Assembly: GCA_902594235.1 (NCBI GenBank)
Contig: CACJLJ010000001.1
Span: 186,001 to 250,000 of the forward strand
Length of the DNA stretch: 64,000 nt
Source of the DNA: an uncultured Pelagibacteraceae bacterium
GTDB lineage: Bacteria > Pseudomonadota > Alphaproteobacteria > Pelagibacterales > Pelagibacteraceae
Reading direction: 5' to 3'
Below, piece by piece: positions 15,518 to 41,605 of this stretch. The notes beneath the pieces are model-generated. The model saw nothing but the letters and a program-made list of their open reading frames with translations. It ran no database searches and was not told the DNA's origin. The position numbers and the translations under genes are program-made. Within the stretch, counting starts at the first letter, position 1. The number at the start of each line of letters is the position of its first letter.

Positions 15518-15532
15518 TGACTTAATAAATTT

Positions 15533-19591: not shown

Positions 19592-19607
19592 ATGGGGGAA
19601 TAATAAA

Positions 19608-21080
19608 ATGACAATAAACTTTAAAACACCTGAAATAAAAGAACTACAACCAAGACTTCTAGTAATGGGAGTGGGAGGTGCTGGAGGAAATGCAATTAAT
19701 GAAATGATTGATAGTGGAATGCAAGGAGTAGAATTCATTGCAGTCAACACTGATGCACAAGATCTAAAACATAGTAAAGCAAAATTAAAAGTCCAAATTG
19801 GCTTGAATCTTACAAAAGGTTTAGGTGCAGGTGCAAAACTTGATATTGGCCAAGCTGCTGCTGATGAGTCTTTAAATGATATAATTAATATACTGCAAGG
19901 TGCAAATATGGTTTTTATCGCCGCTGGAATGGGTGGTGGAACAGGAACAGGTGCAGCACATGTTATCGCAAGAGCAGCAAAAGAATTAAATATTTTAACA
20001 GTTGGAGTTGTTACTCTTCCTTTTTTATATGAAGGTCCTTCAAGAATGAGAAGAGCTCAAATTGGATTAGAAGAATTACGAAAACATGTAGATACTATAA
20101 TAGTAATTCCAAATCAAAATTTATTTAAAATTGCGAATGAGCAAACAACGTTTGAGGAGTCTTTTAATCTTTCAAATAATGTTTTAATGCATGGGGTTCA
20201 AAGTGTTACTGATTTAATGGTCAGACCTGGCATTATTAACTTAGATTTTGCTGATGTGGAGACTGTAATGGCTTCTATGGGCAAAGCTATGATGGGTACT
20301 GGAGAAGCTGAGGGAGAAGGACGATCAATGAAAGCGACTGAGCTAGCAATTAGCAATCCATTAATTGATGATTATACTTTAAAAGGTGCAAAGGGTCTTT
20401 TAGTTAATATTACTGGAGGAAAAGATCTAAAACTATTTGAAGTGGATGAGGTAGTAAATAAGATTAGATCTGAAGTTGAAGCAGATGCAGAAATAATTAT
20501 TGGAGCAATTACAGATCCACTATTGGATGGAAAAATTAGAGTCTCTATTGTAGCCACATCATTAGATGGTCAGCAGCCTGAAACAAAATCTGTTATTAAT
20601 ATGGTCCACAGAATTCAAAATAGAAATCCAGGTTATTCAGATTTTTCAACCACAGTTGCTACAGCCTCTTATGGATTATCACCATTATCAAATCCAGTAT
20701 CGCATGGTGCTAATGCTCTCAAGCTTGAGAATGAAGTAATTTCAGATAATAATAACCAAACTGTATCACAAGAGTCTAATTATGATGTAAATGATGAGTA
20801 TCATAAAGAATTTTTAAAAAATCAGGAAATTGAAAATATTGTTGCTAAAACCTCTGATGATAGTGAGGTTTCTTTCTCAGAGGAGGCAGTTGAGCCTACC
20901 CAAAATTTACAGGATGTTCCAAACGACCTAAAGGAATTTGGTGTTGATACTGATGAACCAGATTTATTTAGTTCTGAAAATGATAATTCAGCCTCTGAAG
21001 ATTTGTTAAGATCTTCTAGTGAAGAAAATGATGAGGATGATCTTGAAATACCTGCATTTTTAAGAAGACAAAAAAATTAA
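19608..21080 (+). CDS. ftsZ: Cell division GTPase FtsZ
   Basis: FtsZ polymerises into the cytokinetic ring. The 490-residue protein has the nucleotide-binding [15 protein letters not shown] (residues 21-35), the tubulin signature GGGTGTGAA (about 109-117), the NTDAQDL loop and the T7-type [15 protein letters not shown] long acidic linker (about residues 335-475) leads to the conserved C-terminal peptide EIPAFLRRQ that binds FtsA and other partners. A Shine-Dalgarno-like GGGGGAA lies just before the start. It lies second in the cluster, behind mraZ, instead of after ftsQ-ftsA near lpxC as in most Alphaproteobacteria. Confidence 0.97.
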
Positions 21081-26932: not shown

Positions 26933-28007
26933 TTTTCTTTTAAACTTTGTTGATTTATTTTCTTTTTTGAATGTTTTCAAATATATAACTTTTAGGACTG
27001 GTTTAGCTGTATTTACATCATTGGTGATTGTTTTATTTATTGGAAGTCCATTCATTAAATTTTTCGCTAATAAAGCAATTACAAATCCCATTAGAGATGA
27101 CGGACCATCAGACCATATAATTAAAAAAATCGGCACACCAACTATGGGTGGATTGATTATATTAACTGGGCTTTTGATTTCTGTTTTAATGTGGGGTGAT
27201 TTAAAAAATGTTTATGTTATTTTTGCTTTATATATCGCTATATCATTTGGGTTACTTGGTGTGTATGACGATTATCAAAAGATAAAGTTTAAAAACTCAT
27301 CAGGCATTTCCTCAAAAATAAAAATTATAATTCAAATAATTTTAGCAGTTATTGGTCTACTATTTTTGAGTAAATTTGGAAATAATGATGAATTAACAAA
27401 TCTATTTTTTCCTTTTTTTAAAAATTTAGTTATTAACTTAGGTTGGTTTTTTATTCCTTTTGCGGTTTTTGTTATCGTTGGTTCATCAAATGCTGTAAAC
27501 CTAACAGATGGTTTAGATGGTTTAGCAACAGTTCCAGTTATTTTGGTTGCTGCATGTTTCGCATTTATTAGTTACGTAGCTGGAAATATAGTTTTTTCTG
27601 ATTATTTGCAAATTCCATATATTGAGGGAACGGGTGAGATATCAATATTTTGTGGGGCAATAATAGGGGCTTGTTTAGGATTTTTATGGTTTAACGCACC
27701 TCCCGCAAAAATATTTATGGGAGACACTGGATCTTTGTCTTTAGGAGGTTCTTTAGGAGCAGTAGGAATTATTACAAAACATGAGATAGTTTTGGCAATT
27801 ACTGGCGGATTGTTTGTTTTGGAGGCTGTGTCAGTAATGGTTCAGGTTATTTCTTTTAAGATCACAGGCAAAAGAATATTTAAAATGGCCCCAATCCATC
27901 ATCATTTTGAGAAAAAAGGATGGCCCGAGTCGACAGTCGTGATTAGATTTTGGATTATATCAATTATATTAGCAATGATTGGTCTAGCTACATTGAAGCT
28001 AAGATGA
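26922..28007 (+). CDS. mraY: Phospho-MurNAc-pentapeptide transferase MraY
   Basis: MraY attaches the MurNAc-pentapeptide to undecaprenyl phosphate, forming lipid I at the inner membrane. The 361-residue polytopic protein has the typical DDGPSDHIIKKIGTPTMGG (about residues 60-78), YDDYQKIKFKNSSGIS (about 115), NAVNLTDGLDGLA with the catalytic aspartates (about 190), MGDTGSLSLGG (about 266) and the carboxy-terminal APIHHHFEKKGWPE. It overlaps murEF by 11 bases and murD by 4. Confidence 0.97.
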   Translation: MLYNFLLNFVDLFSFLNVFKYITFRTGLAVFTSLVIVLFIGSPFIKFFANKAITNPIRDDGPSDHIIKKIGTPTMGGLIILTGLLISVLMWGDLKNVYVIFALYIAISFGLLGVYDDYQKIKFKNSSGISSKIKIIIQIILAVIGLLFLSKFGNNDELTNLFFPFFKNLVINLGWFFIPFAVFVIVGSSNAVNLTDGLDGLATVPVILVAACFAFISYVAGNIVFSDYLQIPYIEGTGEISIFCGAIIGACLGFLWFNAPPAKIFMGDTGSLSLGGSLGAVGIITKHEIVLAITGGLFVLEAVSVMVQVISFKITGKRIFKMAPIHHHFEKKGWPESTVVIRFWIISIILAMIGLATLKLR

Positions 28008-29320
28008 TGAATATAACTAAAAATATTTTTTTTAAAGAAAAAATATTGGTTTATGGCCTTGGTAAAAGTGGAATATCTGCTTTTAAATTTTTAAAAAAAA
28101 GAAATGATGTTTTTTTATATGATGATAGGCGAATTAAGATTAAAGATTTTAATTTAAAAAAAAAAATTATCTCTTATAAAAAAATCAAAAAATTAAGTTT
28201 TGACAGAATAATTTTAAGTCCAGGAATTAACATTAGTAAGTGTAAATTAGCAAAATTTTTAAAAAAATATAAAAAAAAGATTTATTCTGATTTAGATGTT
28301 TTCTATTCTTTTAATCAAAATGACTGCATAACTATTACAGGAACTAATGGTAAATCTACAACTTGCCAACTTCTTTACGAAATATTTTCAAAACAAAATT
28401 TTGACGTTAGATTGGTCGGAAATATTGGTAATCCAATTTTATCAGCTAAAAATATAAAAAAAAAAACAATTTTTGTAGTAGAGGCATCATCTTATCAATT
28501 AGAATATAGTAAAATCTTTCGTTCAAAATATGCTGCTATTTTGAATATAGCGCCCGACCATTTAGAAAGACATAAAACTTTAAGAGGATATGTAAAAGCA
28601 AAATTTAAATTATTCAAAAATCAACCTAAGAATTCCTTTAGTTTTTTTAAGAAAAATGACTCTTTAGTAAAGAATGAAATTAAATTAAATAAACTAAATA
28701 GTAAAATTATCAAAGTTTCATCAGATCAACTTGACAAATTCATAAAAAGAATTGGGAATGAATATTTCTTTAATGAAACAAATAAAGAAAATTTGTCATT
28801 TGTTTTAGCCATTTCAAAAAAATTTAAATTTAAAAAGAAGAATTTAATAAAAGTAATTCGAAATTTTAAGGGATTAAGATATCGGCAACAGGTCATATTT
28901 AAAAATTCAAATTTATTAATTATAAATGATTCAAAATCTACAAGTTTTTCATCTTCTAATGGGATTCTTAAATTAGATGGTAATATCTATTGGCTTTTAG
29001 GAGGTATTCCAAAAAAAGGGGATAAGTTTAATTTATCAAAAAAATACCATAGTAGAATCAAAGCATTTGTTTATGGAAAGAATTTAAAATTTTTTAATAA
29101 ATCTTTAAAAAATAAAATTAAATTTGAAAATTTTCCTAATTTAAGAATGGGTTTAAAAAAAATTTTTTCATTAATTCATAAAAAACAATCAAAAAATATT
29201 ATTTTGTTTAGTCCCAGCGCTGCATCATTTGATACTTTTAAAAATTTTGAGGATAGAGGTTCGTATTTTAATAAATTATTAAAAAACTATTTAAATGGAA
29301 AAAAAATTATTAATATTTAA
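28004..29320 (+). CDS. murD: UDP-N-acetylmuramoylalanine-D-glutamate ligase MurD
   Basis: MurD adds D-Glu to UDP-MurNAc-L-Ala. The N-terminal Rossmann start is ILVYGLGKSGISAFKFL, the ATP loop is ITITGTNGKSTTCQLLYE, and VVEASSYQLEY and NIAPDHLERH follow; the C-terminal domain has INDSKSTSFSSSNG. The open frame extends upstream to 27950, but that would overlap mraY by 58 bases. I chose ATG at 28004, which forms an ATGA overlap with the mraY stop and gives 438 residues, close to the family size. A second ATG follows directly at 28007. It overlaps ftsW by 26 bases. Confidence 0.95.
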   Translation: MMNITKNIFFKEKILVYGLGKSGISAFKFLKKRNDVFLYDDRRIKIKDFNLKKKIISYKKIKKLSFDRIILSPGINISKCKLAKFLKKYKKKIYSDLDVFYSFNQNDCITITGTNGKSTTCQLLYEIFSKQNFDVRLVGNIGNPILSAKNIKKKTIFVVEASSYQLEYSKIFRSKYAAILNIAPDHLERHKTLRGYVKAKFKLFKNQPKNSFSFFKKNDSLVKNEIKLNKLNSKIIKVSSDQLDKFIKRIGNEYFFNETNKENLSFVLAISKKFKFKKKNLIKVIRNFKGLRYRQQVIFKNSNLLIINDSKSTSFSSSNGILKLDGNIYWLLGGIPKKGDKFNLSKKYHSRIKAFVYGKNLKFFNKSLKNKIKFENFPNLRMGLKKIFSLIHKKQSKNIILFSPSAASFDTFKNFEDRGSYFNKLLKNYLNGKKIINI

Positions 29321-30419
29321 TTTTTATTATAAGTGGTGGAAAAATATAGATAAATTTATATTTTTTATAATTGTTCTTCTTTTTATCATTGGTCTTTTTT
29401 TTTCATTAGTGTCAACATCTCTAATTGTTTCAGATAAATTGAATACAAATGATTATTCTTTTTTTCTCAAACACCTTATTTTTATTTTTTTAGGTGTTAT
29501 TGTAATTTTTATTTTTTCCTCAATTGATAAAAAAAGCTTATTTAAATTTTCACTTTTACTTTTTTTTATTTCTTTATTTTTTTTAATTTTAGTACCTCTC
29601 ATCGGAATTGAGGTCAAAGGTTCAAAAAGATGGATAGATTTGTATTTATTACCAAGATTTCAACCAGTAGAATTAGTTAAACCATTCTTAATAATAGCTA
29701 TAAGTTTGATTTTAAGTAGTGAAAAATATTCTAATTTATTTTTGAAGTATTTCTTTTCTTTCTCAACAACTTTAATAGTAGTTTTGCTTTTAGCCCTCCA
29801 ACCAGATATAGGTCAAACACTTATAGTTTTTTTAAGTTGGTTAATATTAATTTTTTGTTCAGGTATAAGTATTACATTTCTTCTTATTTTATTTTTTATT
29901 TCTGTATTTATGCTTTCATATTTAATAATTTTTGTTCCAAAGTTTGAGTATATTAAAAATAGATTGCTATCTTTTTTTGATACAGAAAAGGGTACACATA
30001 ATTTTCAATCTGATAAGGCAATTGACTCAATTATAAGTGGCGGTTTTTTTGGAAAAGGAATTGGAGAGGGGACCTTAAAAAATAAAGTGCCCGAAGCTCA
30101 TACTGATTATATAATTTCTGTAATTTCCGAGGAGTTTGGTGTAGTTGCAATAATTTTAATATTAATATTATTTTTGATATTCATTTATACAGTTTTAAAA
30201 AAAGTTTATTCTGAGAGTGAGGAGAGAATAAAGTTGATTTTAGTAGGATGTATAAGTTTAATTTTGATGCAATCTATTATTCATATTGGAGTGAATATAA
30301 GGTTATTTCCAACTACAGGAATGACATTACCTTACATAAGTTATGGTGGTTCATCAATAATTAGTGTCTCAATTCTATCAGGAATAATACTTAATCTTAC
30401 AAAAAGAAAAATAGATTAA
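29295..30419 (+). CDS. ftsW: Septal peptidoglycan polymerase FtsW (SEDS family)
   Basis: FtsW polymerises lipid II into glycan strands at the septum together with FtsI. The 374-residue protein is a polytopic membrane protein with the SEDS signatures GSKRWIDLYLLPRFQPVELV (about residues 107-126), LALQPDIGQTLIV (about 165), GGFFGKGIGEGTLKNKVPEA with DYIISVISEEFG (about 250-280) and PTTGMTLPYISYGGSS (about 342). It shares one base with murG (TAATG). Confidence 0.95.
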   Translation: MEKKLLIFNFYYKWWKNIDKFIFFIIVLLFIIGLFFSLVSTSLIVSDKLNTNDYSFFLKHLIFIFLGVIVIFIFSSIDKKSLFKFSLLLFFISLFFLILVPLIGIEVKGSKRWIDLYLLPRFQPVELVKPFLIIAISLILSSEKYSNLFLKYFFSFSTTLIVVLLLALQPDIGQTLIVFLSWLILIFCSGISITFLLILFFISVFMLSYLIIFVPKFEYIKNRLLSFFDTEKGTHNFQSDKAIDSIISGGFFGKGIGEGTLKNKVPEAHTDYIISVISEEFGVVAIILILILFLIFIYTVLKKVYSESEERIKLILVGCISLILMQSIIHIGVNIRLFPTTGMTLPYISYGGSSIISVSILSGIILNLTKRKID

Positions 30420-31486
30420 TGAAAAAAAAAATTTTAATTTCAACTGGAGGTTCAGGCGGGCATATAATACCTGCACTTAGTATTTATAAACATTTGTCTA
30501 ACCAATTTGATATAATAATGACTTCAGATCTTAGAGGTATAAATTATATTGGTAAAGATATTTCTGAAGTAAAAATTATTAATACTCCAAAGTTAAATAA
30601 TTTTTTTCTTTTACCATTTAATTTACTTAAAGTTTTTTATTTAACCATTAAATCAATTATATTATTTAAAAATGAAAAAATTGATAAAATAATTTCTACT
30701 GGTGGATATATGTCTTTACCACTCTGTTTATCTGCTAAATTACTAAATTTAGATATATATTTGGTAGAGCCTAATATGGTTTTAGGGAGAGCAAACAAGT
30801 TTTTCTTGAAATTTTGTAAAAAAATTTTTTGTTATTCTGATGAAATTAAAAATTTTCCAAATTATTTAAAAGATAAAATTGTAGTGATTAAACCTTTAGT
30901 AAGAGAGGAATTTTACCAAAAACAATCAACTTTTTCTACTGGTAATAAAAAATTTAACTTATTAATTGTAGGTGGGAGCCAAGGAGCAGGTATTTTTGAT
31001 AGCTACTTCAAAAATACAATTTTAATGATATCAAAAAAAATTCCATTAAAAATAATTCAACAAACAAATTCAAGTAATAAAAAATATTTAAAATCATTAT
31101 ATGACAATAATCAGATTGAAAATTACATTTTTAGCTTTGAAGATAAATTTATTGAAATTCTTCAGCAAGTAGACGCATGCATCACACGAGCTGGTGCAAC
31201 TACTTTAGCTGAATTATCAATATTAAATATTCCATTTTTAGCTATACCTTTACCTACAGCGATGGATAATCATCAATTAGAAAATGCGAAATATTACGAA
31301 AAAAAAGGTTGTTCTTGGATCTTAGATCAAAATTCTTCGCAAGAAAAAATAGAGAAAATTCTCATAGAAATTATAGATAATAAAAATGATTTTAAAAGAA
31401 AGAAAGAAAATTTAAAAATTTTAAATTATGAAAATACATGGAATAATGTTAATCAAAAATTATTAGAAAATATAAATGAAAATTGA
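30419..31486 (+). CDS. murG: UDP-GlcNAc:lipid I N-acetylglucosaminyltransferase MurG
   Basis: MurG adds GlcNAc to lipid I at the cytoplasmic face, giving lipid II. The 355-residue GT-B protein has the N-terminal glycine-rich loop STGGSGGHIIPAL (residues 8-20), the second loop ISTGGYMSLP (about 92), the C-domain GGSQGAGIFD (about 185) and the donor-binding ITRAGATTLAELS (about 255) with LPTAMDNHQLENA. It is short by a few residues against E. coli but has all motifs. It overlaps murC by 11 bases. Confidence 0.96.
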   Translation: MKKKILISTGGSGGHIIPALSIYKHLSNQFDIIMTSDLRGINYIGKDISEVKIINTPKLNNFFLLPFNLLKVFYLTIKSIILFKNEKIDKIISTGGYMSLPLCLSAKLLNLDIYLVEPNMVLGRANKFFLKFCKKIFCYSDEIKNFPNYLKDKIVVIKPLVREEFYQKQSTFSTGNKKFNLLIVGGSQGAGIFDSYFKNTILMISKKIPLKIIQQTNSSNKKYLKSLYDNNQIENYIFSFEDKFIEILQQVDACITRAGATTLAELSILNIPFLAIPLPTAMDNHQLENAKYYEKKGCSWILDQNSSQEKIEKILIEIIDNKNDFKRKKENLKILNYENTWNNVNQKLLENINEN

Positions 31487-32870
31487 AATAGCAAAAAATG
31501 AAATCATCCACTTTATAGGAATAGGTGGTATCGGAATGAGTGGACTTTCTTTAATAATGAAAGGAAAGGGATTTAAAGTACAAGGTAGCGATATTTCATT
31601 TAATAAAAATATAGAAAGATTAAAAAGAGAAAAAATTAAAGTTTTTTTAAGACAAAAAAAACAAAATCTTAAGAATGCTACAATAGTAGTAATATCTTCT
31701 GCCATTAAAAATAATAATCCAGAATTAGTTGAGGCAAGAAGAAAAAATTTACCTATTATTAAAAGAGGAAGCATGTTGGCCCATATTGTATCTTTAATGA
31801 AAAATGTTGTGGTGGCAGGATCTCACGGCAAAACAACTACTACATCTTTGGTGGCGTCGATATTTCAAAAAACCAAAATTGATCCAACAATTATTAATGG
31901 CGGTGTGATAAATTCTATTAGAAATTCTGCAAAACTGGGAAAGAGTGAATGGTCAATTTTAGAAGCAGACGAGTCTGATGGAAGTTTTGTTCAAATACCA
32001 CCAACATATTCAATCATTACAAATATAGATAGAGAACATATGGATTTTTATAAGTCCATTGATGATTTAAAGAAGTATTTCAATCAATTTTTAGATAAAG
32101 TTCCCTCATTTGGTAAATCATTTATATGCTTAGATGATAAAATTAACGCTGATTTAATTAAAACTTTAAAAAATAAAAATTTTTATACTTATGGGACTAA
32201 TTTAAAATCAAATTTTCTAATTAAGAATATAAAACAAAATAAAAATCTTACTGAGTTTGATTTATTGGTAAAGCTTCCTAACAAACAAAAATTAGAAATT
32301 AAAAAAATTAAAATTCCGTTATTAGGTATTCATAATGTAAGAAATTCTGTTGGTGCCGCAGCAGTTGCTTTAACAGTTGGAATTTCAATTTCAGATATTA
32401 AAAAAGGATTACTTAATTTTAAAGGAGTTCAAAGAAGATTTAATAAAATCTTTACTTATAATAATATAGATTTTTATGATGATTATGCTCATCACCCAAC
32501 AGAAATAAAAGTTGTATTAGAAGGCGTGGATAGAGTTTACAAACATTACGAAAAAGTATGTGTGTTTCAACCACACCGCATATCAAGACTAAAAGATTTA
32601 AGAAAACAGTTTTCTACTGCTTTTAAAAAAGCTAACACAGTAATTTTATGCCCAATATATACAGCAGGAGAAAAAATGAAATTAGGATTTAGTTATATTA
32701 ATTTTGCGAAAGAAATTATTAAAGATTCAAATGTTAAACTCTTTATGATTAAAGATAATTTTCAACTTGCAAAATTTATAAAAAAAAACATGTATGGAAA
32801 AAAAATTGTAATTGGAATGGGTGCAGGCACTATATCTAATTGGATGAGAGAACTTCCAAAACTAATTTAA
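31476..32870 (+). CDS. murC: UDP-N-acetylmuramate-L-alanine ligase MurC
   Basis: MurC adds L-Ala, the first amino acid of the peptide stem. The 464-residue protein has HFIGIGGIGMSGLSLIM (about residues 12-28), the ATP loop VVAGSHGKTTTTSLVAS (about 111), EADESDGSF, NIDREHMDFY, and the late YDDYAHHPTEIK (about 334) and QPHRISRLKDL. The start ATG at 31476 lies within the murG 3' end. The stop shares its last base with the murB start. Confidence 0.97.
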   Translation: MKIEIAKNEIIHFIGIGGIGMSGLSLIMKGKGFKVQGSDISFNKNIERLKREKIKVFLRQKKQNLKNATIVVISSAIKNNNPELVEARRKNLPIIKRGSMLAHIVSLMKNVVVAGSHGKTTTTSLVASIFQKTKIDPTIINGGVINSIRNSAKLGKSEWSILEADESDGSFVQIPPTYSIITNIDREHMDFYKSIDDLKKYFNQFLDKVPSFGKSFICLDDKINADLIKTLKNKNFYTYGTNLKSNFLIKNIKQNKNLTEFDLLVKLPNKQKLEIKKIKIPLLGIHNVRNSVGAAAVALTVGISISDIKKGLLNFKGVQRRFNKIFTYNNIDFYDDYAHHPTEIKVVLEGVDRVYKHYEKVCVFQPHRISRLKDLRKQFSTAFKKANTVILCPIYTAGEKMKLGFSYINFAKEIIKDSNVKLFMIKDNFQLAKFIKKNMYGKKIVIGMGAGTISNWMRELPKLI

Positions 32871-33778
32871 TGAATACAAATCAATTAAAAAATCTGTTAA
32901 ATGAATTCGGCACAAATGTAAGATTTGAGCATGATTTAAAAAAAAAAAATTGGTTCAATATCGGTGGTAAATCTAAAGTTTTTTTTAAAGCAGATAATTT
33001 GAAAGAATTAGTTAACTTTATAAAGAAAATTAATAATAATGAAAAAATTTTTGTACTTGGTGCTGGCTCAAATACTTTAATAACTGATGGTTTATTCGAT
33101 GGTGTTGTAATTAAATTAGGTAAAAATTTTAATAATATTTCATTATTGGGTGACGATATAATAATTGCTGGTAGTGCGGTTAACGATAAAAATTTATCAA
33201 ATTTTGCAATAGATAATAGTATTAGTGGTTTTGAATTTTTATCCTGTATCCCAGGTACAATTGGTGGTGGCATAAAAATGAATGCTGGTTGTTTTGGAAA
33301 AGAGTTTAAGGATTTGTTAATTTCAGTCCAGGTAATTAATAAATTAGGAGATGTGATTAGTATTCCCAGTAAAGATATAAAATTTGAGTATAGATGCAAC
33401 AATTTACCAGATGATTTAATTTTTTTAAGCGCTTCTTTTAAAGGTGTGAAGGGTCAATCAATAAATATTAAAAATGAGACAATTAGACTTAAAAAAGAGA
33501 AAGAAAGAATTCAACCTTCAAAAATAAAAACAAGTGGAAGCACTTTTAAGAACCCAATTTTACAAACCAAGAGAAAAGTTTGGGAACTTATAAAAGATTC
33601 TGTTCCATTGAATATTAGTTTTGGAGATGCCTGTATTTCTGAAAAACATTGCAATTTTTTTGTAAACAAAGGTAATGCATCATATGAAGATATGATAAAA
33701 TTAATTGAGTTTGTATCAAGTAAAGTTTTGGAGAAAACCGGTATAAGCTTAGAAAAAGAAATAAAAATTTTGAAATAA
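32870..33778 (+). CDS. murB: UDP-N-acetylenolpyruvoylglucosamine reductase MurB
   Basis: MurB reduces the enolpyruvyl group with NADPH, giving UDP-MurNAc. It is a FAD protein with NWFNIGGKSKVFFKA near residue 23, FVLGAGSNTLITDG near 57, EFLSCIPGTIGGGIKMNAGC near 121 and SGSTFKNP near 220, where the catalytic Ser lies. The frame opens at 32840, but the ATG at 32870 overlaps the murC stop by one base (TAATG) and gives a family-like 302-residue protein beginning NTNQLKNLLNEFG. It is followed by ddl after one base. Confidence 0.95.
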   Translation: MNTNQLKNLLNEFGTNVRFEHDLKKKNWFNIGGKSKVFFKADNLKELVNFIKKINNNEKIFVLGAGSNTLITDGLFDGVVIKLGKNFNNISLLGDDIIIAGSAVNDKNLSNFAIDNSISGFEFLSCIPGTIGGGIKMNAGCFGKEFKDLLISVQVINKLGDVISIPSKDIKFEYRCNNLPDDLIFLSASFKGVKGQSINIKNETIRLKKEKERIQPSKIKTSGSTFKNPILQTKRKVWELIKDSVPLNISFGDACISEKHCNFFVNKGNASYEDMIKLIEFVSSKVLEKTGISLEKEIKILK

Positions 33779-33779
33779 A

Positions 33780-34694
33780 TTGAAAAAAAAGATTTTAATA
33801 ATTTCAGGCGGTATCTCTAAAGAGAGAATTATCAGTTTAGATACTGGTAAACAGGTAGCCAAGGAACTTAAAAAAAATGGTTATAAAATAAAAATATGTG
33901 AACCTGATTTTAATTTAACAAAAGTGATTAAATTGTTTAAACCAAACATAATTTTTAATGCTCTACATGGTCAATTTGGAGAAGATGGATATATACAAAC
34001 AATATTAGAGAGCACAAAGGTCCCCTATACTCATTCAGGGGTACTTTCATCAGCAATAGCTATGGATAAATTAATTTCTAAAAAAATTTTTACCAAGAAT
34101 AAAATTTTAACTCCAAAATTTATTGCTTATAATTTTGAAGAATCTAAAAAATTTTTAGTTAATATAGTGAATAAAAAATTAAATTTTCCTGTTGTAATAA
34201 AACCGATTAACGAGGGTTCTAGTGTTAATGTTTATATATGTCATAAGCATAATTTTCTAAAAAGATTGGAATTATTAAGATCTTATAAAAAAATAATAAT
34301 AGAGCAATTTATTGATGGAAGAGAAATTCAAGCTGCAATAATAAATAACAAAAAATTAGGTGCAATTGAGTTAAAGCCGAAAAGAAAATTTTATGACTAT
34401 CAAGCAAAATATAATCCTAAGGCTAGAACAAAACATTTAATACCAGTAGATCTATCCAAAAAAAGATATAACTTACTTATGAATTTAGCTTTAAGAGCTC
34501 ATAAGTTAATTGGATGTAGGGGTGTAACTAGATCAGATTTTAAATTTTATAAAGACAAATTTTATCTTTTAGAGATCAATACTCAGCCAGGGATGACTAA
34601 ACTTTCTTTAGTTCCAGAGATAGCCGCATATCATGGAATAAAATTCATTAATTTAATTGAATTGATTTTAAACGATGCGTCTACAAATAAGTAA
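33780..34694 (+). CDS. ddl: D-alanine-D-alanine ligase
   Basis: Ddl makes the D-Ala-D-Ala dipeptide used by MurF. The 304-residue ATP-grasp protein shows NALHGQFGEDGYIQTILES (about residues 60-78), the SGVLSSAIAMDKLISKKIF lid, FPVVIKPINEGSSVNV (about 137), DYQAKYNP and LLEINTQPGMTKLSLVP (about 264). The start is TTG at 33780, one base after the murB stop; the N-terminus (KKKILIISGGISKER) fits the family. It overlaps ftsQ by 20 bases. Confidence 0.94.
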   Translation: MKKKILIISGGISKERIISLDTGKQVAKELKKNGYKIKICEPDFNLTKVIKLFKPNIIFNALHGQFGEDGYIQTILESTKVPYTHSGVLSSAIAMDKLISKKIFTKNKILTPKFIAYNFEESKKFLVNIVNKKLNFPVVIKPINEGSSVNVYICHKHNFLKRLELLRSYKKIIIEQFIDGREIQAAIINNKKLGAIELKPKRKFYDYQAKYNPKARTKHLIPVDLSKKRYNLLMNLALRAHKLIGCRGVTRSDFKFYKDKFYLLEINTQPGMTKLSLVPEIAAYHGIKFINLIELILNDASTNK

Positions 34695-35346
34695 AAAAAT
34701 TTTAATTTATATTCTTCTATTAATTCTTTTTACAACACTTCATAATAAAAAAATTAGAACTAGTGAATTCTTGCAGATAAAGAAAATTGAGATTACTGGA
34801 CTTAGTGAAAAAGAAAATAAAAAGATTCTTAAAAATTTAAATTTTCTTTATTCTACAAATCTTTTATTTGTACCGAAAATAAAAGTTGAGAACCTACTTA
34901 GGTCAAATAATTTAATTGAAAAATACTCAATTTTCAAAAGATACCCGTCAACCTTAAGGATAAATCTTGAAAAAACAAATTTTTTAGCACGTATAAAGAA
35001 AGATGGTATAAGCTTTTATGTTGGTTCGAATGGTAAATTAATAAAATCTAGTGGTGAAATCTTAAATCTTCCTTTTATTTTTGGAAAAGTTGATATTAAG
35101 GAATTTTTACAACTTAGACTGATAATTGAAAATTCTGAACTTGATTATAATGAAATTAAAGATTTATATTATTTTCCATCAAAACGTTGGGATATTAAGA
35201 TGAATAATGGAATATTAGTAAGACTTCCCAAAGAAAAAATAAAAGATTCATTAAAATTGTTAATCTCAATATTTAATAACAAAAATTTCAAATCATTTAA
35301 AGTTATTGATTTGCGTCAAGAAAAACAGGTAATCATCGATGAATGA
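34675..35346 (+). CDS. ftsQ: Cell division protein FtsQ
   Basis: FtsQ is the bitopic divisome scaffold. The 223-residue protein has one N-terminal membrane span (ILIYILLLILFTTLH, residues 8-22), a POTRA-like domain (FLQIKKIEITGLSEKENKKI, residues 32-51; LIEKYSIFKRYPSTLRINLE) and the FtsQ beta domain ending KVIDLRQEKQVIIDE. It is shorter than most FtsQ proteins. It lies between ddl and the ftsA-like gene, the standard place, and overlaps the latter by 8 bases. Confidence 0.9.
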   Translation: MRLQISKKILIYILLLILFTTLHNKKIRTSEFLQIKKIEITGLSEKENKKILKNLNFLYSTNLLFVPKIKVENLLRSNNLIEKYSIFKRYPSTLRINLEKTNFLARIKKDGISFYVGSNGKLIKSSGEILNLPFIFGKVDIKEFLQLRLIIENSELDYNEIKDLYYFPSKRWDIKMNNGILVRLPKEKIKDSLKLLISIFNNKNFKSFKVIDLRQEKQVIIDE

Positions 35347-36043
35347 AGATGAGAATTTTGAAACATACTTATTTCTTAGTCTAAGAAAAATAGAAATATT
35401 TGTATGTAAAAAATTAGACAATAAAATTTTTTATAAAAATGAATTTTTGATAAAAGATGAATTACGAGAATTTAATTTTGAATTAATTGATAATTTTTTA
35501 AGCAACAATATTTTTAAAATTGAAAAATTAATTAAGGATTTTATCAAAAATATTTATGTTATAATTGATTATGATATTTTTTTTAAAGTTCAAATTACTC
35601 TAAAAAAATATTATTCAGGAAAAGTAGTTAATAGAAATAGTTTAAGCAATATATTGATTGATGCAAGAAATCAGTGTCATAAAACATTTCAAGGTAAAAA
35701 TATTATTCATATTTTTTTAGATAATTACAAAATAGATAATAAAGACTTTAAGTATTTACCAAAAGATTTAATATGTAACAACCTTTGCTTAGATATAACC
35801 TTTATATGTTTGCCTGAAACCTTCATTAAAAATTTAGAAAATATACTAAAAAGATATCAAATTACTTTAAATCGCTTTATAAGTGCTAATTACATGCGTG
35901 AGTTGTTTCCTAATAGTGATCTAGAATTAAATGAAATTGCAAAGCGAATTTTGGATGGTTGTAATGAAAATGAAGTGAAATTGGTAGCTAAAAGCCCAAA
36001 GAATAAGGGATTTTTCGAAAAATTTTTTCATTTTTTTAGTTAG
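35339..36043 (+). CDS. FtsA-derived mini protein lacking the ATPase half
   Basis: A 234-residue protein in the normal ftsA slot between ftsQ and lpxC. Its first 190 or so residues follow the layout of FtsA subdomains 1A-start and 1C: a degenerate LFLSLRKIEIFVCKK in place of the first phosphate strand, VVNRNSLSNILIDARN for the 'eIt..Dv..vl..A' segment, then NIIHIFLDNYKIDNKDF and LDITFICLPETFIKNLENIL. FtsA would continue with the 2A/2B ATPase domains (DiGgGtt), but these are missing. The chain goes to a linker and a terminal FFEKFFHFF helix like the FtsA membrane-targeting tail. FtsA origin is inferred from position and pattern; ATP binding looks impossible. Confidence 0.7.
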   Translation: MNEDENFETYLFLSLRKIEIFVCKKLDNKIFYKNEFLIKDELREFNFELIDNFLSNNIFKIEKLIKDFIKNIYVIIDYDIFFKVQITLKKYYSGKVVNRNSLSNILIDARNQCHKTFQGKNIIHIFLDNYKIDNKDFKYLPKDLICNNLCLDITFICLPETFIKNLENILKRYQITLNRFISANYMRELFPNSDLELNEIAKRILDGCNENEVKLVAKSPKNKGFFEKFFHFFS

Positions 36044-36104
36044 TTGTATTTTAATGTAACATTAGTTGTTTTGGGATTTCCTTATAAAAGTTTTAAGTTT
36101 CAGC

Positions 36105-37025
36105 GTGTCATATTTAAATCAAAAAACTTTAAACTCATCTGTAACATTTAAAGGTATAGGATTGCATTATGGTAAAAATGTAGAGCTACAAGTAAAGCCT
36201 GCTAGTCCTAATTCTGGTATTATTTTTAAAAGAACTGACTTGAAATTAAATAATTTAGTTTACCCTCATTTTTCAAACGTAACAAATACATCTTTAAATA
36301 CAACTATCTCCAATGAATACGGAGTTAAAGTTTCCACTATAGAACATCTTATGGGTGCTTTATTTGGATTGGGTATAGATAATGCATTGATAGAAATAAA
36401 TAATGAGGAAGTACCAATTTTAGATGGTTCTGCAAAAGTATTTGTTGATGAAATAAAAAAAGTTGGCATTAAATCCAGTGATGCTCCAATCAAGATTATT
36501 AAAATAGAAAAAAAAATTGAATTTAGAAATGGAGAAAGATTTATTTCAATTGAGCCCTCAAAACTGAGCTTGAATATAGATTTTGAACTTAAATACAAGA
36601 ATTCAATTATTGGCAATCAGAGAAATATGATTAAGGTTTATGAGGATGACCTTTCAGAAATTTATAATTCAAGAACATTTTGTTTGTATGAAGATATAGA
36701 AAAAATTAGGAAAATCGGTTTAGCTCAAGGAGGGAGTTTAGAGAATGCAGTCGTAGTAAAAGACGGTAAAATTTTAAATGAGCACGGATTAAGAAATGAT
36801 AATGAATTTGTGAATCATAAAATATTAGATTGTATTGGAGATTTATTTACTTGTGGTTTTAGAATGATTGCTGAAATAAAATGTTCACAGGGTGGACACT
36901 ATTTTACTAATGAATTATTAAGAAAAGTATTTAATAATCAAGATAACTTCAGAGTTTTGGAAATTAAAGAAAAAAGTCTTCCACATACCTTTATTCAAAA
37001 GAACCTGCTTAAATCAATAGCATAA
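36105..37025 (+). CDS. lpxC: UDP-3-O-acyl-N-acetylglucosamine deacetylase LpxC
   Basis: LpxC carries out the committed step of lipid A synthesis, so the cell makes lipopolysaccharide-type lipids. Zinc ligands are visible in TIEHLMGALFGLG and NHKILDCIGDLF; the GGSLENAVVV block is also typical. The frame opens with TTG at 36066, but GTG at 36105 gives SYLNQKTLNSSVTFKGIGLH, which aligns with the usual start and leaves 306 residues, the family size; TTG would add 13 residues. It follows the ftsA-like gene, as lpxC commonly follows ftsZ in Proteobacteria. Confidence 0.95.
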   Translation: MSYLNQKTLNSSVTFKGIGLHYGKNVELQVKPASPNSGIIFKRTDLKLNNLVYPHFSNVTNTSLNTTISNEYGVKVSTIEHLMGALFGLGIDNALIEINNEEVPILDGSAKVFVDEIKKVGIKSSDAPIKIIKIEKKIEFRNGERFISIEPSKLSLNIDFELKYKNSIIGNQRNMIKVYEDDLSEIYNSRTFCLYEDIEKIRKIGLAQGGSLENAVVVKDGKILNEHGLRNDNEFVNHKILDCIGDLFTCGFRMIAEIKCSQGGHYFTNELLRKVFNNQDNFRVLEIKEKSLPHTFIQKNLLKSIA

Positions 37026-37053
37026 TTTTTTTTTTTTATTAATATTATACAAT

Positions 37054-37893
37054 ATGAAATATTTTTTCATTTTGATAATTTTGTTATCTTTTTTACTCTC
37101 AGGTTGTGGAAGCGGAAAAAAAGAGAAAGAATTAGTTCTCGACAGCACTGATATAGAAGCACAAATGATTGAAGCTTACAAAAAAGGTCTTAAAGCTTTA
37201 GAAGAAGGTGATACTTTATTTGCTGCAAAAAATTTTAATACAGCTGAAAATATTTACCCTCAATCTATATGGGCCCCGAGGTCCGTTTTAATGGCAGCAT
37301 ATTCGTATTATGTAGATGATTATTATGGAGACGCAATTTTTGAACTTAAAAGATTTTTAAAAAATTATCCAAAAAATGAAAATTACCCTTATGCATATTT
37401 TCTTCTTGCTTCGTGTTACTATGAAACTATTGTGGATGAAAAAAAGGACTTAGCATCGATACAAAAATCTAAAGAGTATTTTACTATAATAATAAATGAT
37501 TATCCAAACACTGATTTTTCTTTAGATGCAAAATTTAAATTATTATTGATAGATAATATTCTTGCATCAAAAGAAGTTTATATAGGAAATTACTACTTAA
37601 GTAAAAAAAAATGGATTGCAGCAATGAATAGATTTAAAACTGTAATAAATGATTATGATGAAACAGAATATGTTCAAGAGGCCCTACATCGATTAGTTGA
37701 AATATATTATTTATTAGGATTAGAAAATGAAGCAAAAAAATATGCTGTTTTGTTAGGTTATAATTATGGAAGTAGTGATTGGTACAAAGAGTCTTATAAA
37801 GTTTTCAATAAAAAATATGAAGATCCGAGAAAAAAAATTAAGAAAGACAAGGGAAACATAATTATTAGAAAATTTAAGTCTCTTTTTGATTAA
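37054..37893 (+). CDS. bamD: Outer-membrane assembly lipoprotein BamD
   Basis: BamD is part of the complex that inserts beta-barrel proteins in the outer membrane. The 279-residue precursor has a lipoprotein signal with lipobox LLSGC (Cys at about residue 18), then TPR-like repeats: EAYKKGLKALEEGDTLFAAK, YYGDAIFELKRFLKNYPKNE, YAYFLLASCYYETIVDEKKD (with the family's YlrG-like block) and a C-terminal NRFKTVINDYDETEYVQEAL. It lies between lpxC and ligA; recN, which often lies between them in Alphaproteobacteria, is absent. Confidence 0.93.
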   Translation: MKYFFILIILLSFLLSGCGSGKKEKELVLDSTDIEAQMIEAYKKGLKALEEGDTLFAAKNFNTAENIYPQSIWAPRSVLMAAYSYYVDDYYGDAIFELKRFLKNYPKNENYPYAYFLLASCYYETIVDEKKDLASIQKSKEYFTIIINDYPNTDFSLDAKFKLLLIDNILASKEVYIGNYYLSKKKWIAAMNRFKTVINDYDETEYVQEALHRLVEIYYLLGLENEAKKYAVLLGYNYGSSDWYKESYKVFNKKYEDPRKKIKKDKGNIIIRKFKSLFD

Positions 37894-37894
37894 T

Positions 37895-39916
37895 ATGAAC
37901 CCTATAAAAATAAAGAAAGCATACCTAGATAAAATAAAACAGATCATAAAATATAATCAAAACTATTATGAGAAAAGTGATCCTTTAGTATCAGATCTTG
38001 AGTATGATAATCTTAAAAAAGAAATAATTGCTCTTGAAAAAAAATATAAGTTTTTGAGTCATCCCAATTCTCCAACAAAAATTGTTGGTTATAAACCTTC
38101 AAAAAATTTTAAAAAAATAAAACATCTTACTCCGATGTTGTCTTTATCTAATGCTTTTACTGAAAGCGATTTGATTAATTTTGAGAAAAGAATAATTAAT
38201 TTTCTTAATGAGAAAAATAATTTTGAAATCGAATATAGTGCTGAACCAAAGATTGATGGTATTTCAGCATCACTTTTCTATAAAAATGGAAAACTTATTA
38301 CTGGTTTATCAAGGGGAGATGGAAAAGAAGGTGAGGATATAACTGAAAATTTAAAAACGATTAAAGATATTCCTCATTTAATAAAAGTTAAAAATTTTCC
38401 AGAACAAATTGATATTAGGGGAGAAGTTTACATTCAAAATTCAGATTTTGAAAAATTATCAGATAAGTTTGCCAATCCAAGAAATGCAGCATCGGGATCA
38501 TTAAGACAAAAAAATCCTAAGGAAACAAAAAAAATTCCATTAAGATTTATTGCTTATACACATGGATTTGAAAAAAATATGCAAATCACCTCTCAAAGTG
38601 AATATCTTAAATATTTGAATGATTGGGGTTTTAATATCAATCCACTTAATAAAACCATAAAAGGTGTCAAAAATTTATTAAAGAATTATTTTGAAATTGA
38701 AAAAAAAAGAAATGAAATTGATTTTGATATTGATGGAATTGTCTATAAAGTCAATAATTTTCAACTTCAAAAAAGATTGGGCAATGTTGCAAATGCACCT
38801 AGATGGGCAATTGCACATAAGTTTTCTGCTACTAGCGGTACATCTAAAATTCAAGATATTGATATCCAAATTGGAAGAACAGGAGCCTTAACACCTGTAG
38901 CCAAAATTAAACCAACAAATATTGGTGGAGTAGTGGTATCAAATGCGACTTTACATAATGAAGATGAAATAATCAGAAAAGATATCAGAATTGGCGATAC
39001 AGTAGTTGTCGAAAGGGCTGGGGATGTAATTCCTCATATAGTTTCGGTAAATATAAAAAAAAGAGAAAAAAATTCGAAGAAATTTGTGTTTCCGTTAAAG
39101 TGTCCATCATGCGGTTCAAAAACTATAAAGGAATATAATTCTACTACAAAAAAAAAAGATGCAGTGCGCAGATGTTCAAGTGAAGGTTTTGAATGTGAAA
39201 AAATATCTATAGAAAAATTAAAACATTTTGTGTCTAAAGAAGCTTTAAATATTGAAGGTTTTGGAAAAAAAATTGTTGAAAATTTTTGGAATTTAAAATT
39301 GATTAAATTTCCACAAGATATATTTAATTTAGATTATGATAAAATTTTAAATCTTGATGGTTGGGGAAGACAATCAGTTTCAAATCTAAAATATTCTATC
39401 GACACGCGTAAAAAAATATCTTTTGAAAAATTAATCTTTGCTCTTGGTATAAGACATATTGGTTTAGAAAACGCAAAATTGATTGCTAAAAACTTAAAAT
39501 CATTTTCAAATTTTATAAATCTGTCAAAGTTAAATAGATTTGATGAATTACAAAATATTGATGGTATTGGAGAAACACAAATTAATTCTATAAAAAGCTT
39601 TTTTTTAAATAAAGATAACCTAAAAATTTTAAATGATCTCTCAAAAATATTATCTGTAAATCACAGTGTGGATGTAAAGAAAAATGGTCCCTTAAAAGAT
39701 AAAACGTTTATGCTAACAGGTAAATTGGAAAATATGAGTAGAGCAGAAGCAAAATCATTAATTGAAATTAATTCTGGTACAATTATCAGCAATATATCAA
39801 AAAAACTTGATTATTTGATTATCGGAAATAAACCAACCAAAAGAAAAGTTGACAGTGCTAAAGAGCTTAATGTTAAAGTTATATCCCAGTCAGATTGGTT
39901 AAAAATGTTAGATTAA
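37895..39916 (+). CDS. ligA: NAD-dependent DNA ligase LigA
   Basis: LigA seals nicks in replication and repair using NAD. The 673-residue protein has the NAD-binding start YYEKSDPLVSDLEYDNLKKE, the nucleotidyltransferase core with adenylated Lys in AEPKIDGISASLFY (about residue 115), an OB fold (GRTGALTPVAKIKP), a four-Cys zinc finger beginning CPSCGSK, helix-hairpin-helix repeats and a C-terminal BRCT domain (KTFMLTGKLENMSRAEAKSL). An upstream TTG at 37886 is in frame, but ATG at 37895 follows the bamD stop and is preferred. Confidence 0.97.
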   Translation: MNPIKIKKAYLDKIKQIIKYNQNYYEKSDPLVSDLEYDNLKKEIIALEKKYKFLSHPNSPTKIVGYKPSKNFKKIKHLTPMLSLSNAFTESDLINFEKRIINFLNEKNNFEIEYSAEPKIDGISASLFYKNGKLITGLSRGDGKEGEDITENLKTIKDIPHLIKVKNFPEQIDIRGEVYIQNSDFEKLSDKFANPRNAASGSLRQKNPKETKKIPLRFIAYTHGFEKNMQITSQSEYLKYLNDWGFNINPLNKTIKGVKNLLKNYFEIEKKRNEIDFDIDGIVYKVNNFQLQKRLGNVANAPRWAIAHKFSATSGTSKIQDIDIQIGRTGALTPVAKIKPTNIGGVVVSNATLHNEDEIIRKDIRIGDTVVVERAGDVIPHIVSVNIKKREKNSKKFVFPLKCPSCGSKTIKEYNSTTKKKDAVRRCSSEGFECEKISIEKLKHFVSKEALNIEGFGKKIVENFWNLKLIKFPQDIFNLDYDKILNLDGWGRQSVSNLKYSIDTRKKISFEKLIFALGIRHIGLENAKLIAKNLKSFSNFINLSKLNRFDELQNIDGIGETQINSIKSFFLNKDNLKILNDLSKILSVNHSVDVKKNGPLKDKTFMLTGKLENMSRAEAKSLIEINSGTIISNISKKLDYLIIGNKPTKRKVDSAKELNVKVISQSDWLKMLD

Positions 39917-41605
39917 ACTAGCTAACCATTTTTTTTCGTTCTTGTTTAGGAACTTTGATAATTGAGAATATATTTTGAGATGATATTTAAATAAATAATC
40001 CTTTTCGTTATTATTTAACATTTTAAAGTTAATTAAATCTTTTTCTATAGGAGCAAGGGTAAGATTTTCAAATGATAATTTTTTATCAGCTTGCTTTACG
40101 TAAATTAAATTTTCAATTCTGATACCGAATTTATTCTTTTTATAAAAACCTGGTTCGTTACTTAAAATCATACCTTTCTTTAATTTAACAGAATTATATT
40201 TGGATATTGCTTGAGGCCCTTCATGTACATTAAGAAAAAAACCAACTCCATGACCTGTTCCATGATTATAATCTAGACCACTTTTTTTTAAGTTTTTTCT
40301 TGCAAGGACATCAATAAGTTTACCATTAAAATATTTTTTAAGATTAGCAGTTACAACTGCAATATGGCCTTTTAGAACTTTTGTGAATATATTTTTGATA
40401 TTCTGTTTTTGTTTTGAAAAGCAAATTGTTCGAGTTACATCTGTAGTCCCATATTTATATTGTCCGCCTGAGTCACAGAGAAAAATATCTTTTTTATTGA
40501 TCATTTTAGCTGATTTTTTTTCGGCCCTATAATGTACGATTGCTCCATTCTTTCCAGACCCAGCTATAGTATTGAAGCTTGGGAAGAGATATTTTTTGTT
40601 TTTTTTCCTAAATTTTTCTAATTTTTTTTGAGCATCAAATTCAGTCATTTTTTTTTTATTAATTTTTTTTATCCAATATAGGAATTTAGTAAGTGCAACC
40701 CCATCTAAAATATGACTATTAATCATATGGTTTATTTCTTTTTTAGTTTTGATTGATTTTAAATAGTATATTGGATCAGAAATTTTTTTAATTTTGTTAT
40801 TTTGTTTAAGTAAATCTTCAAAATAAATAGAACAAGTATTTTTATCGATTAATATTTTCTCATTTTTAAAATCTTCTATAAAGTTTGTAAAACTTTTAGG
40901 TTCAATTATCTGGTTTTTTAAAATTTTTTTTTCTTTTATCAAATTTTTTGCTTTATAAAAATCGGTTAATATAAAAATTTTCTTTCTATCATTTATTAAT
41001 AATCTGCAATTAGGAATAGGACTACAAGGATTATCATAGCCTCTAATATTTAATATCCACGCTACATTCTCAGGTGCACTTACAAACAGATAATTTGAAT
41101 TATTTTTTTTTATGATCTCAACTATTTTGTTTATTTTAGATTTATGACTTTCCCCTGTAATATTGTTACTTATAGAATAATATAACTTTGATTTTATTTG
41201 TTGTTTATTAAAAATTAAGTCTACCAAATTACGATTAATATATTTAATTTTAGTGTGATTATTAAAATATTTTTTTATTTTTTCGGATGTAAAAACTTTT
41301 GGATCGACACCAAGTTTTAGATTTTTAAAAATTTTATTGTTTATTATTTTATCATAACCGATTATTTTATAATTTTTACCTGACTCAATTGCTGCTTGGA
41401 TCGTATATCTACCGTCAACAAATAAATAATTTTTTTTTTTTAGAATTATTGCACATCCAGCCGAACCGCTGAAATTAGATATAGTTTTTAATCTATCGTT
41501 AGAAGCATATTCGCCAAAAAATTCATCATTTTTTGGAATGATATATCCATCTATATTGAACAAATCTAATTTTTGTCTTAATGTATAAATCCTATTTTTG
41601 ATCAT
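39908..41605 (-). CDS. Xaa-Pro aminopeptidase (M24 family, long form)
   Basis: The enzyme removes N-terminal residues that precede proline. The 565-residue, three-domain protein begins RIYTLRQKLDLFNIDGYIIP with two creatinase-like N-domains, and has the M24 catalytic domain at the end. Metal ligands are visible in LCDSGGQYKYGTTDVTRTI, GTGHGVGFFLNVHEGPQ, SNEPGFYK and GIRIENLIYV. The length matches the eukaryotic-type aminopeptidase P found in many Alphaproteobacteria. It overlaps the helicase gene upstream by 4 bases and ends convergent on ligA. Confidence 0.93.
   Translation of the reverse strand: MIKNRIYTLRQKLDLFNIDGYIIPKNDEFFGEYASNDRLKTISNFSGSAGCAIILKKKNYLFVDGRYTIQAAIESGKNYKIIGYDKIINNKIFKNLKLGVDPKVFTSEKIKKYFNNHTKIKYINRNLVDLIFNKQQIKSKLYYSISNNITGESHKSKINKIVEIIKKNNSNYLFVSAPENVAWILNIRGYDNPCSPIPNCRLLINDRKKIFILTDFYKAKNLIKEKKILKNQIIEPKSFTNFIEDFKNEKILIDKNTCSIYFEDLLKQNNKIKKISDPIYYLKSIKTKKEINHMINSHILDGVALTKFLYWIKKINKKKMTEFDAQKKLEKFRKKNKKYLFPSFNTIAGSGKNGAIVHYRAEKKSAKMINKKDIFLCDSGGQYKYGTTDVTRTICFSKQKQNIKNIFTKVLKGHIAVVTANLKKYFNGKLIDVLARKNLKKSGLDYNHGTGHGVGFFLNVHEGPQAISKYNSVKLKKGMILSNEPGFYKKNKFGIRIENLIYVKQADKKLSFENLTLAPIEKDLINFKMLNNNEKDYLFKYHLKIYSQLSKFLNKNEKKWLASLI

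What the first reader, a model, noticed from the sequence alone, without database searches (positions are those of the whole stretch)
35339..36043. A miniature FtsA in the ftsA slot, without the ATPase half
The gene between ftsQ and lpxC encodes only 234 residues. Its N-terminal 190 follow FtsA subdomain 1A-start/1C patterning and its last residues (FFEKFFHFF) look like the FtsA amphipathic membrane tail, but the whole ATP-binding 2A/2B region is absent. FtsA normally needs ATP-linked filaments to tether FtsZ. A shortened version that keeps the partner-binding 1C domain and the membrane anchor suggests a simplified tether in a very small cell, or an intermediate in loss of FtsA.
Basis: partly seen in the sequence, partly recalled or inferred. 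Interest (0 to 1): 0.82.

Follow-up and report, generated by a model that had tools for sequence, protein, structure and literature searches.

The report
FtsA shortened to its recruiting half
In many SAR11 ocean bacteria the cell-division protein FtsA has lost the whole half that elsewhere binds ATP and the FtsZ ring, yet the remaining half is kept by selection, so the textbook account of how the division ring is attached may not hold for these cells.

Summary
Window 35339-36043 (+) encodes 234 residues in the ftsA slot. Profiles, synteny, full-length sister genes and an AlphaFold model (pLDDT 87.9; FtsA entries fill the top 19 Foldseek rows) show FtsA subdomains 1A and 1C plus the amphipathic tail, with 2A/2B missing. 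No 2A/2B match (PF14450) was found in this genome. Of 150 matches listed for the genus, 108 are mini-sized, 22 full-length and 20 partial. No complete mini was seen outside the genus. The first ATP motif (D/E-x-G) is present in 26 of 26 full-length congeners and 0 of 32 minis. dN/dS is 0.14-0.30.

The interpretation needs correcting. In known FtsAs the FtsZ site is in 2B, not 1C; 1C and the 1A-1C cleft take FtsN and form lateral contacts. So the mini lacks the known FtsZ site and the longitudinal filament contact, and keeps the partner cleft and membrane anchor. FtsZ's C-terminal peptide is unchanged. My best reading is a nucleotide-free membrane adaptor for late division proteins; an FtsZ tether through a remodelled surface is the main rival. 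Neighbour genes place the minis in about four lineages (parallel loss, or exchange of ftsA). My searches found nothing in print.

The parts
35339..36043 (+). mini-ftsA, 234 aa
35348..35578 (+). residues 4-80: first part of subdomain 1A (strands 7-14, 17-24, 30-37; helix 47-65; strand 71-77)
   Evidence: AlphaFold model and alignment to FtsA structures; boundaries approximate
35369..35395 (+). residues 11-19, where full-length congeners carry the first ATP (phosphate-1) motif D/E-x-G; here LFLSLRKIE
   Evidence: D/E-x-G in 0 of 32 minis, 26 of 26 full-length congeners
35582..35851 (+). residues 82-171: subdomain 1C (SHS2)
   Evidence: in other species the lateral-contact and FtsN-contacting domain (PMC7613929 passages); boundaries approximate
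35864..35905 (+). residues 176-189: return of 1A (strand 176-182, helix 183-189)
35906..35926 (+). residues 190-196: junction where about 130-160 residues of 2A/2B are missing
   Evidence: the aligner put the gap about 24 columns later
35927..35962 (+). residues 197-208: last helix of 1A, which lies after 2A in full-length FtsA
   Evidence: aligned FtsA chain ranges end at 371-392; best local match at the C-end of a full-length congener for 32 of 32 minis
36008..36040 (+). residues 224-234: amphipathic membrane tail GFFEKFFHFFS
   Evidence: (helix 225-233, pLDDT about 50)
34675..35346 (+). ftsQ, overlapping the mini-ftsA start
36066..37025 (+). lpxC
19608..21080 (+). ftsZ, the only Tubulin-family match in this genome, away from ftsA and next to an mraZ-like gene
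21039..21077 (+). FtsZ C-terminal peptide [13 protein letters not shown], shared by mini and full-length lineages

Best explanation
Shown: the gene descends from a full-length FtsA that lost subdomains 2A and 2B by an internal deletion, and the first ATP motif, in the retained half, is gone too. Inferred: the product is a nucleotide-free protein held on the membrane by its C-terminal amphipathic helix. It cannot form the longitudinal (2A-2B) filament and lacks the known FtsZ site (2B). It keeps the 1A-1C cleft, which in FtsA and PilM takes the cytoplasmic tail of a bitopic partner, and the 1C surface used for lateral pairing. I therefore think it works as a short, passive adaptor (monomer or 1C dimer) that gathers a late division protein at the membrane. 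On this reading FtsZ is attached mainly by something else.
For: Deletion and fold. No 2A lobe elsewhere in this genome: with control. ATP motif absent only in minis within the genus. Selection: (dN/dS 0.135-0.299 in 11 mini pairs; 0.120-0.198 in 5 full-length pairs). Tail: loose pattern in 32 of 32 minis, mean hydrophobic moment 0.546 against 0.314 for other 11-mers of the same proteins. Breadth: 108 mini-sized of 150 listed matches. Roles of 2A/2B, 1C and the cleft in other species: PMC8998562 (figure legend and passages), PMC7613929 (passages).
Against: The adaptor step is inference. FtsZ's C-terminal peptide did not drift after 2B was lost (EIPAFLR in 30 of 30 FtsZ tails read, 14 of them from mini genomes), which would fit continued binding by the mini. 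No other FtsZ anchor was identified: SepF in 0 of 24 genomes; PF02687 (FtsX) matches 22 of 24 genomes but not the window's, and within the genus the frames are 405-425, 459-460 or 842-865 codons, which I read as other permeases. FtsN, the known 1C partner, was not recognised: SPOR matches 6 of 24 genomes, each time a lipoprotein-like gene. In Neisseria gonorrhoeae the FtsN and FtsZ contacts were mapped to 2A/2B (PMC5727935 passages), so partner sites differ between species. The amphipathic character of the window's own tail is modest against shuffles (430 of 10000 reach it).
Confidence: 0.48

Rival explanations
1. Rewired tether: mini-FtsA still anchors FtsZ, binding its C-terminal peptide through a new or previously minor surface (for instance the 1A face exposed by loss of 2A), without ATP.
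For: FtsZ C-terminal peptide unchanged in mini lineages; membrane tail retained; FtsZ in 34 of 35 and ZapA in 23 of 24 genomes; SepF in 0 of 24 and no clear FtsX in the genus, so another anchor is not evident.
Against: The FtsZ site described for FtsA is in 2B, which is gone (PMC8998562). The peptide is equally conserved in full-length lineages, so its conservation may reflect other partners.
Confidence: 0.34
2. Relic: the gene is decaying on the way to loss of FtsA.
For: Fast divergence (24-46% identity of minis to the window's); dN/dS somewhat higher than in full-length pairs; two genomes have the frame broken (G078, G282).
Against: dN/dS 0.135-0.299; open frames of 220-248 codons and the tail kept in all 32. 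Of 25 genus genomes without a match I looked at 8: 6 lack lpxC as well, in G109 the contig starts 97 bases before lpxC, and G069 carries the end of a full-length ftsA cut by the contig end. So none was shown to have lost the gene. The two broken frames sit at homopolymer runs and may be sequencing errors.
Confidence: 0.07
3. The 2A/2B half is encoded as a separate gene elsewhere and joins the mini to rebuild FtsA.
For: The genome is 96.6% complete, so a gene could lie in a gap; a very degenerate lobe could escape PF14450 (weakest control E 0.0022).
Against: PF14450 finds nothing in this genome and TIGR01174 at E up to 10 finds only the mini and a 647-codon frame that I read as DnaK-like. The first ATP motif, in the retained half, is absent in 32 of 32 minis, which a rebuilt ATPase would not allow. 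Other mini genomes were not searched for a separate 2A/2B.
Confidence: 0.03

Closest known systems
FtsA (TIGR01174; PDB 7q6d, 1e4f, 4a2a, 3wqt, 7q6f/7q6i)
   Same: Gene slot after ftsQ, 1A/1C fold, last 1A helix, amphipathic C-terminal tail; full-length genes of the same genus lie in the same slot.
   Different: No 2A/2B, no phosphate-1 motif, no known FtsZ site, no longitudinal filament interface; 234 aa against 368-394 in full-length congeners.
PilM (type IV pilus; PDB 5eox, 2ych)
   Same: Related fold with a 1C-type subdomain; holds the cytoplasmic tail of a bitopic partner (PilN) in the 1A-1C cleft (PMC7613929 passages).
   Different: Solved with bound nucleotide (entry titles); weaker structural match (best Foldseek E 3.8e-7 against 6.6e-13); no pilus genes seen among the frames read at window 28000-42000 (named by eye except four).
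GspL/EpsL cytoplasmic domain (type II secretion; PDB 1w97, 1yf5, 4pht)
   Same: FtsA/PilM-like domain of similar size (226-238 residues; Z 10.0-10.6) in a membrane-linked adaptor (role recalled).
   Different: Aligned over fewer residues (148-157 of 234) than FtsA (190-203); different gene context.
Full-length SAR11 FtsA with degenerate ATP motifs
   Same: ATP-motif residues missing from a SAR11 FtsA.
   Different: 2A/2B lobe still present; other genera.

Membership tests
FtsA | Position in the division cluster (ftsQ-ftsA-...-lpxC) | tested here: met
   ddl-ftsQ-[ftsA]-lpxC-bamD-ligA in the syntenic loci read (lpxC missing on L134, cut by the contig end)
FtsA | 1A/1C sequence and fold | tested here: met
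   TIGR01174 E 9.9e-5 in the window, matched by 58 of 69 minis at E <= 0.1; PDB profile search; model and fold search
FtsA | 2A/2B lobe (PF14450) | tested here: not met
   No match in the protein or genome; six full-length relatives match, 4 over the cut-off
FtsA | Phosphate-1 nucleotide motif D/E-x-G | tested here: not met
   0 of 32 minis; 26 of 26 full-length congeners; 13 of 19 in other genera
FtsA | Curated NCBIfam cut-off for ftsA (175.85 bits) | tested here: not met
   21.6 bits; 5 of 6 full-length SAR11 FtsAs also miss it
FtsA | C-terminal amphipathic membrane helix | tested here: met
   Sequence and prediction only; membrane binding not tested
FtsA | Binding of the FtsZ C-terminal peptide | not testable with these tools
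   The domain that carries the known site is absent; the peptide is present in FtsZ
FtsA | ATP-dependent polymerisation | not testable with these tools
   The longitudinal 2A-2B interface is absent (PMC7613929 passages)
SHS2_FTSA domain (PF02491) | Gathering score 25.4 bits | tested here: not met
   16.8 bits in the window; 23 of 69 minis match at E <= 0.1, best 4.7e-7
PilM / GspL type adaptors | Best structural and sequence match to that family | tested here: not met
   FtsA entries rank above PilM and GspL in both fold searches

The most novel reading that the evidence does not exclude
In a widespread group of ocean bacteria the ATP-binding, polymerising and FtsZ-binding half of FtsA has been discarded, possibly several times in parallel. 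What remains is a passive membrane adaptor that only gathers late division proteins, and the Z-ring is attached by a route not yet described.
Probability: 0.3. Interest if true: 0.87.

Novelty: new variant of a known kind. Interest (0 to 1): 0.78.

Why it matters
FtsA is generally described as the ATP-dependent filament that ties FtsZ to the membrane and passes signals to the wall synthases. A conserved, selected FtsA without that half is a natural deletion experiment: it separates FtsA's recruiting function from tethering and polymerisation, and sister species with the complete protein serve as controls. If, as I recall from genome sizes, the cultured strains HTCC1062 (full) and HTCC7211 (mini) are among the genomes here, the comparison can be made in culture.

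Tried and rejected
Rejected: frameshift or assembly artefact (similar length in many genomes and in four single-contig ones); a different fold; a second FtsA in this genome; loss of ftsA in the 8 unmatched genus genomes that I looked at, of 25 (all explained by contig ends or missing stretches).

Place of the deletion. In one search the aligner put the gap before the last helix; (32 of 32 minis) it put it after, against the start of 2A. I took the first, aligned the C-terminal parts apart, and tested it with the tail left out: the best local match lies at the C-end of a full-length congener for 32 of 32 minis; over all 832 pairs 532 favour the C-end, 237 the 2A start, 63 tie.

Single or multiple origin, not resolved. 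A seven-gene neighbour tree (78 rows: 31 mini, 45 full, 2 broken, counted as mini) needs at least 4 changes; well-supported branches alone force 3. It rejects one mini clade (p-AU 0.006); upstream and downstream genes do so separately (p-AU 0.0005 and 0.0003, each again 4 changes). The ftsA tree on shared columns instead groups all 32 minis (bootstrap 72, SH-aLRT 98; 74% of 200 bootstrap trees), but does not reject three groupings drawn from the neighbour tree (p-AU 0.16-0.35). Parallel deletion at a domain edge and one deletion spread by exchange of ftsA both remain possible.

Led nowhere: SPOR search for FtsN, SepF, FtsX. ZipA, FzlC and others were not searched. The 'viral' fold library was not searched.

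Bias to note: the 80 named loci were found with a tail pattern ([KN]xGFFE[KR][FL]F), so tail conservation in alignment A3 (the window and 68 of the 80 loci) is not independent; the less biased count is (strict pattern 25 of 32 minis and 13 of 26 full-length; the loose pattern, written after I had seen the tails, 32 of 32 and 26 of 26). Its script stopped on an X residue before the third group, other genera. One search was limited to genomes at least 85% complete and lists only the first 150 matches; the counts 108/22/20 were typed from that listing, and weaker matches are missing. Ten of these that I read were all full-length (G043, G123, G148, G161, G195, G101, G131, G146, G179, G210). In full-length congeners the second ATP motif D-x-G is intact in only 21 of 26. 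dN/dS pairs with dS above about 0.7 are near saturation.

Full report
What is there. The frame 35339-36043 (+) encodes 234 residues between ftsQ, which it overlaps by eight bases, and lpxC. By itself the protein gives weak family matches: TIGR01174 ftsA at E 9.9e-5 over residues 94-183 and SHS2_FTSA at E 0.0088, both below curated cut-offs. A profile of 69 minis finds FtsA first among PDB sequences (7q6d, E 9.3e-4, residues 48-187), and a profile that includes full-length relatives finds it at E 2e-8 (7q6g). An AlphaFold2 model from the 69-sequence alignment has mean pLDDT 87.9 and pTM 0.81, with the tail and the linker before it low. Its first 19 Foldseek rows are FtsA entries, followed by PilM and GspL/EpsL, and the closer aligner puts 11 FtsA entries first, with 190-203 residues aligned, rmsd 3.1-4.4 and Z 10.7-14.1.

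What is missing. Against full-length FtsAs of the same genus, residues up to about 189 match 1A, 1C and the return of 1A, and residues from about 197 match the last helix of 1A, the linker and the tail. The aligner placed the gap differently in a larger set; a test without the tail puts the last helix at the C-end of a full-length congener for 32 of 32 minis, and the structural alignments reach FtsA residues 371-392. Everything between, 2A and 2B, is gone. PF14450 has no match in this genome; the same model does match six full-length SAR11 FtsAs, four over the cut-off, so the negative result carries weight, within a completeness of 96.6%. At E up to 10, TIGR01174 finds only this gene and a 647-codon frame that I read as DnaK-like.

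How widespread. In a family search 109 of 147 genomes match; in the genus, 192 of 217 genomes at least 85% complete. Of the 150 matches listed, 108 have mini-sized frames, 22 frames of 365 codons or more, and 20 are partial. Several partial ones start or end at a contig end by their coordinates (for example G143 and G088). In the order, the second family has 16 matching genomes of 18, all 16 with frames of 397-403 codons. No complete mini was seen outside the window's genus; short frames outside it lie at a contig start (G018, G019) or were not followed up (G053, G107, G111, G115). G026 (contig of 1,308,759 bases, full-length) and G035 (1,456,888 bases, mini) have the sizes that I recall for HTCC1062 and HTCC7211; no call names them.

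Signs of function. The phosphate-1 motif D/E-x-G is present in 26 of 26 full-length congeners and 0 of 32 minis. The genes are still under purifying selection: dN/dS 0.135-0.299 in 11 mini pairs against 0.120-0.198 in 5 full-length pairs. The tail fits one loose pattern in 32 of 32 minis and 26 of 26 full-length congeners, and is more amphipathic than other stretches of the same proteins. FtsZ is a single gene beside an mraZ-like gene, and EIPAFLR is present in 30 of 30 FtsZ tails read: 14 mini, 15 full-length, 1 broken (35 genomes searched, 34 with FtsZ).

How it most likely works. In other species 2B carries the FtsZ site and, with 1A and 2A, the nucleotide pocket, and 1C recruits FtsN (figure legend and passages of PMC8998562; a passage of PMC9426451 agrees on 1C and FtsN). 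Longitudinal filament contacts are 2A-2B, lateral ones are 1C, and FtsN's tail lies in the 1A-1C cleft, as PilN's does in PilM (passages of PMC7613929). In Neisseria gonorrhoeae, by contrast, FtsN and FtsZ contacts were mapped to 2A/2B (PMC5727935 passages). The deletion thus removes the known tethering site, nucleotide control and the longitudinal contact, and leaves the cleft, the lateral surface and the membrane anchor. I conclude that it most likely acts as a passive membrane adaptor for late division proteins. The partner is unknown: no FtsN was recognised in 24 genomes. The FtsZ anchor is unknown too: SepF is absent in 24 of 24 genomes, and of the PF02687 matches in 22 of 24 genomes none in the genus has the size I expect of FtsX; the window's genome has none at all. 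That, and the unchanged FtsZ peptide, keep the rewired-tether reading alive.

Origin. All 19 rows from other genera in the trees, two clades inside the genus and G235 are full-length, so I take the full form as ancestral. Neighbour genes need at least 4 changes and reject a single mini clade; the short ftsA alignment prefers one mini group but does not reject groupings in line with the neighbours. Parallel deletion and one deletion spread by exchange of ftsA both stand.

In print. Searches for SAR11 + FtsA (6 papers), Pelagibacter + FtsZ + cell division (16), FtsA + SHS2/streamlined (15 of 49 listed), Pelagibacter + FtsA (8), FtsA + 1C domain + FtsN + 2B domain (7 of 8 listed), truncated/short/lacking/-like FtsA (25 of 32 listed), Pelagibacterales + divisome (3) and SAR11 + HTCC7211 + cell division (11) listed no paper whose title or shown start of abstract describes this. 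Passages of PMC2877005, PMC10580974 and PMC10213515 were also seen; the rest I know from listings only. The library holds open-access papers only.

Noticed in passing
loci L136 (G008), L141 (G001), L142 (G049), L146 (G027), L135 (G064), L151 (G060b): In other SAR11 genera, 6 of 19 full-length FtsAs lack the D/E-x-G phosphate-1 and the D-x-G phosphate-2 motif while keeping the 2A/2B lobe: apparently a second, separate loss of ATP binding by FtsA.
   Followed up: partly
window 19136-21080: ftsZ lies directly after an mraZ-like gene and before an rsmH-like gene (named by eye), about 14 kb from ftsA, not between ftsA and lpxC; the ftsA slot runs straight into lpxC in the related loci read.
   Followed up: partly
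loci L092 (G078) and L093 (G282): Two mini-ftsA genes have the frame broken at a homopolymer run about a quarter to a third of the way in; sequencing error and real slippage cannot be told apart.
   Followed up: partly
G143:C12, G088:C6, G199:C14, G173:C11, G269:C4, G294:C6: At least six contigs start or stop inside the mini-ftsA gene, and others near it; this may point to high variation or a repeated assembly problem at this locus.
   Followed up: no
window 24065-26932: One 955-codon frame appears to hold both MurE-like and MurF-like sequence, i.e. a fused enzyme (read by eye; no family search made).
   Followed up: no
window 13376-15871: A C5 cytosine methyltransferase-like gene beside a possible restriction gene on the other strand (read by eye, motifs recalled; no search made).
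   Followed up: no
loci L261-L266: The SPOR-family matches in 6 of 24 SAR11 genomes are one 249-284-codon lipoprotein-like gene in a conserved neighbourhood; no FtsN was recognised.
   Followed up: partly
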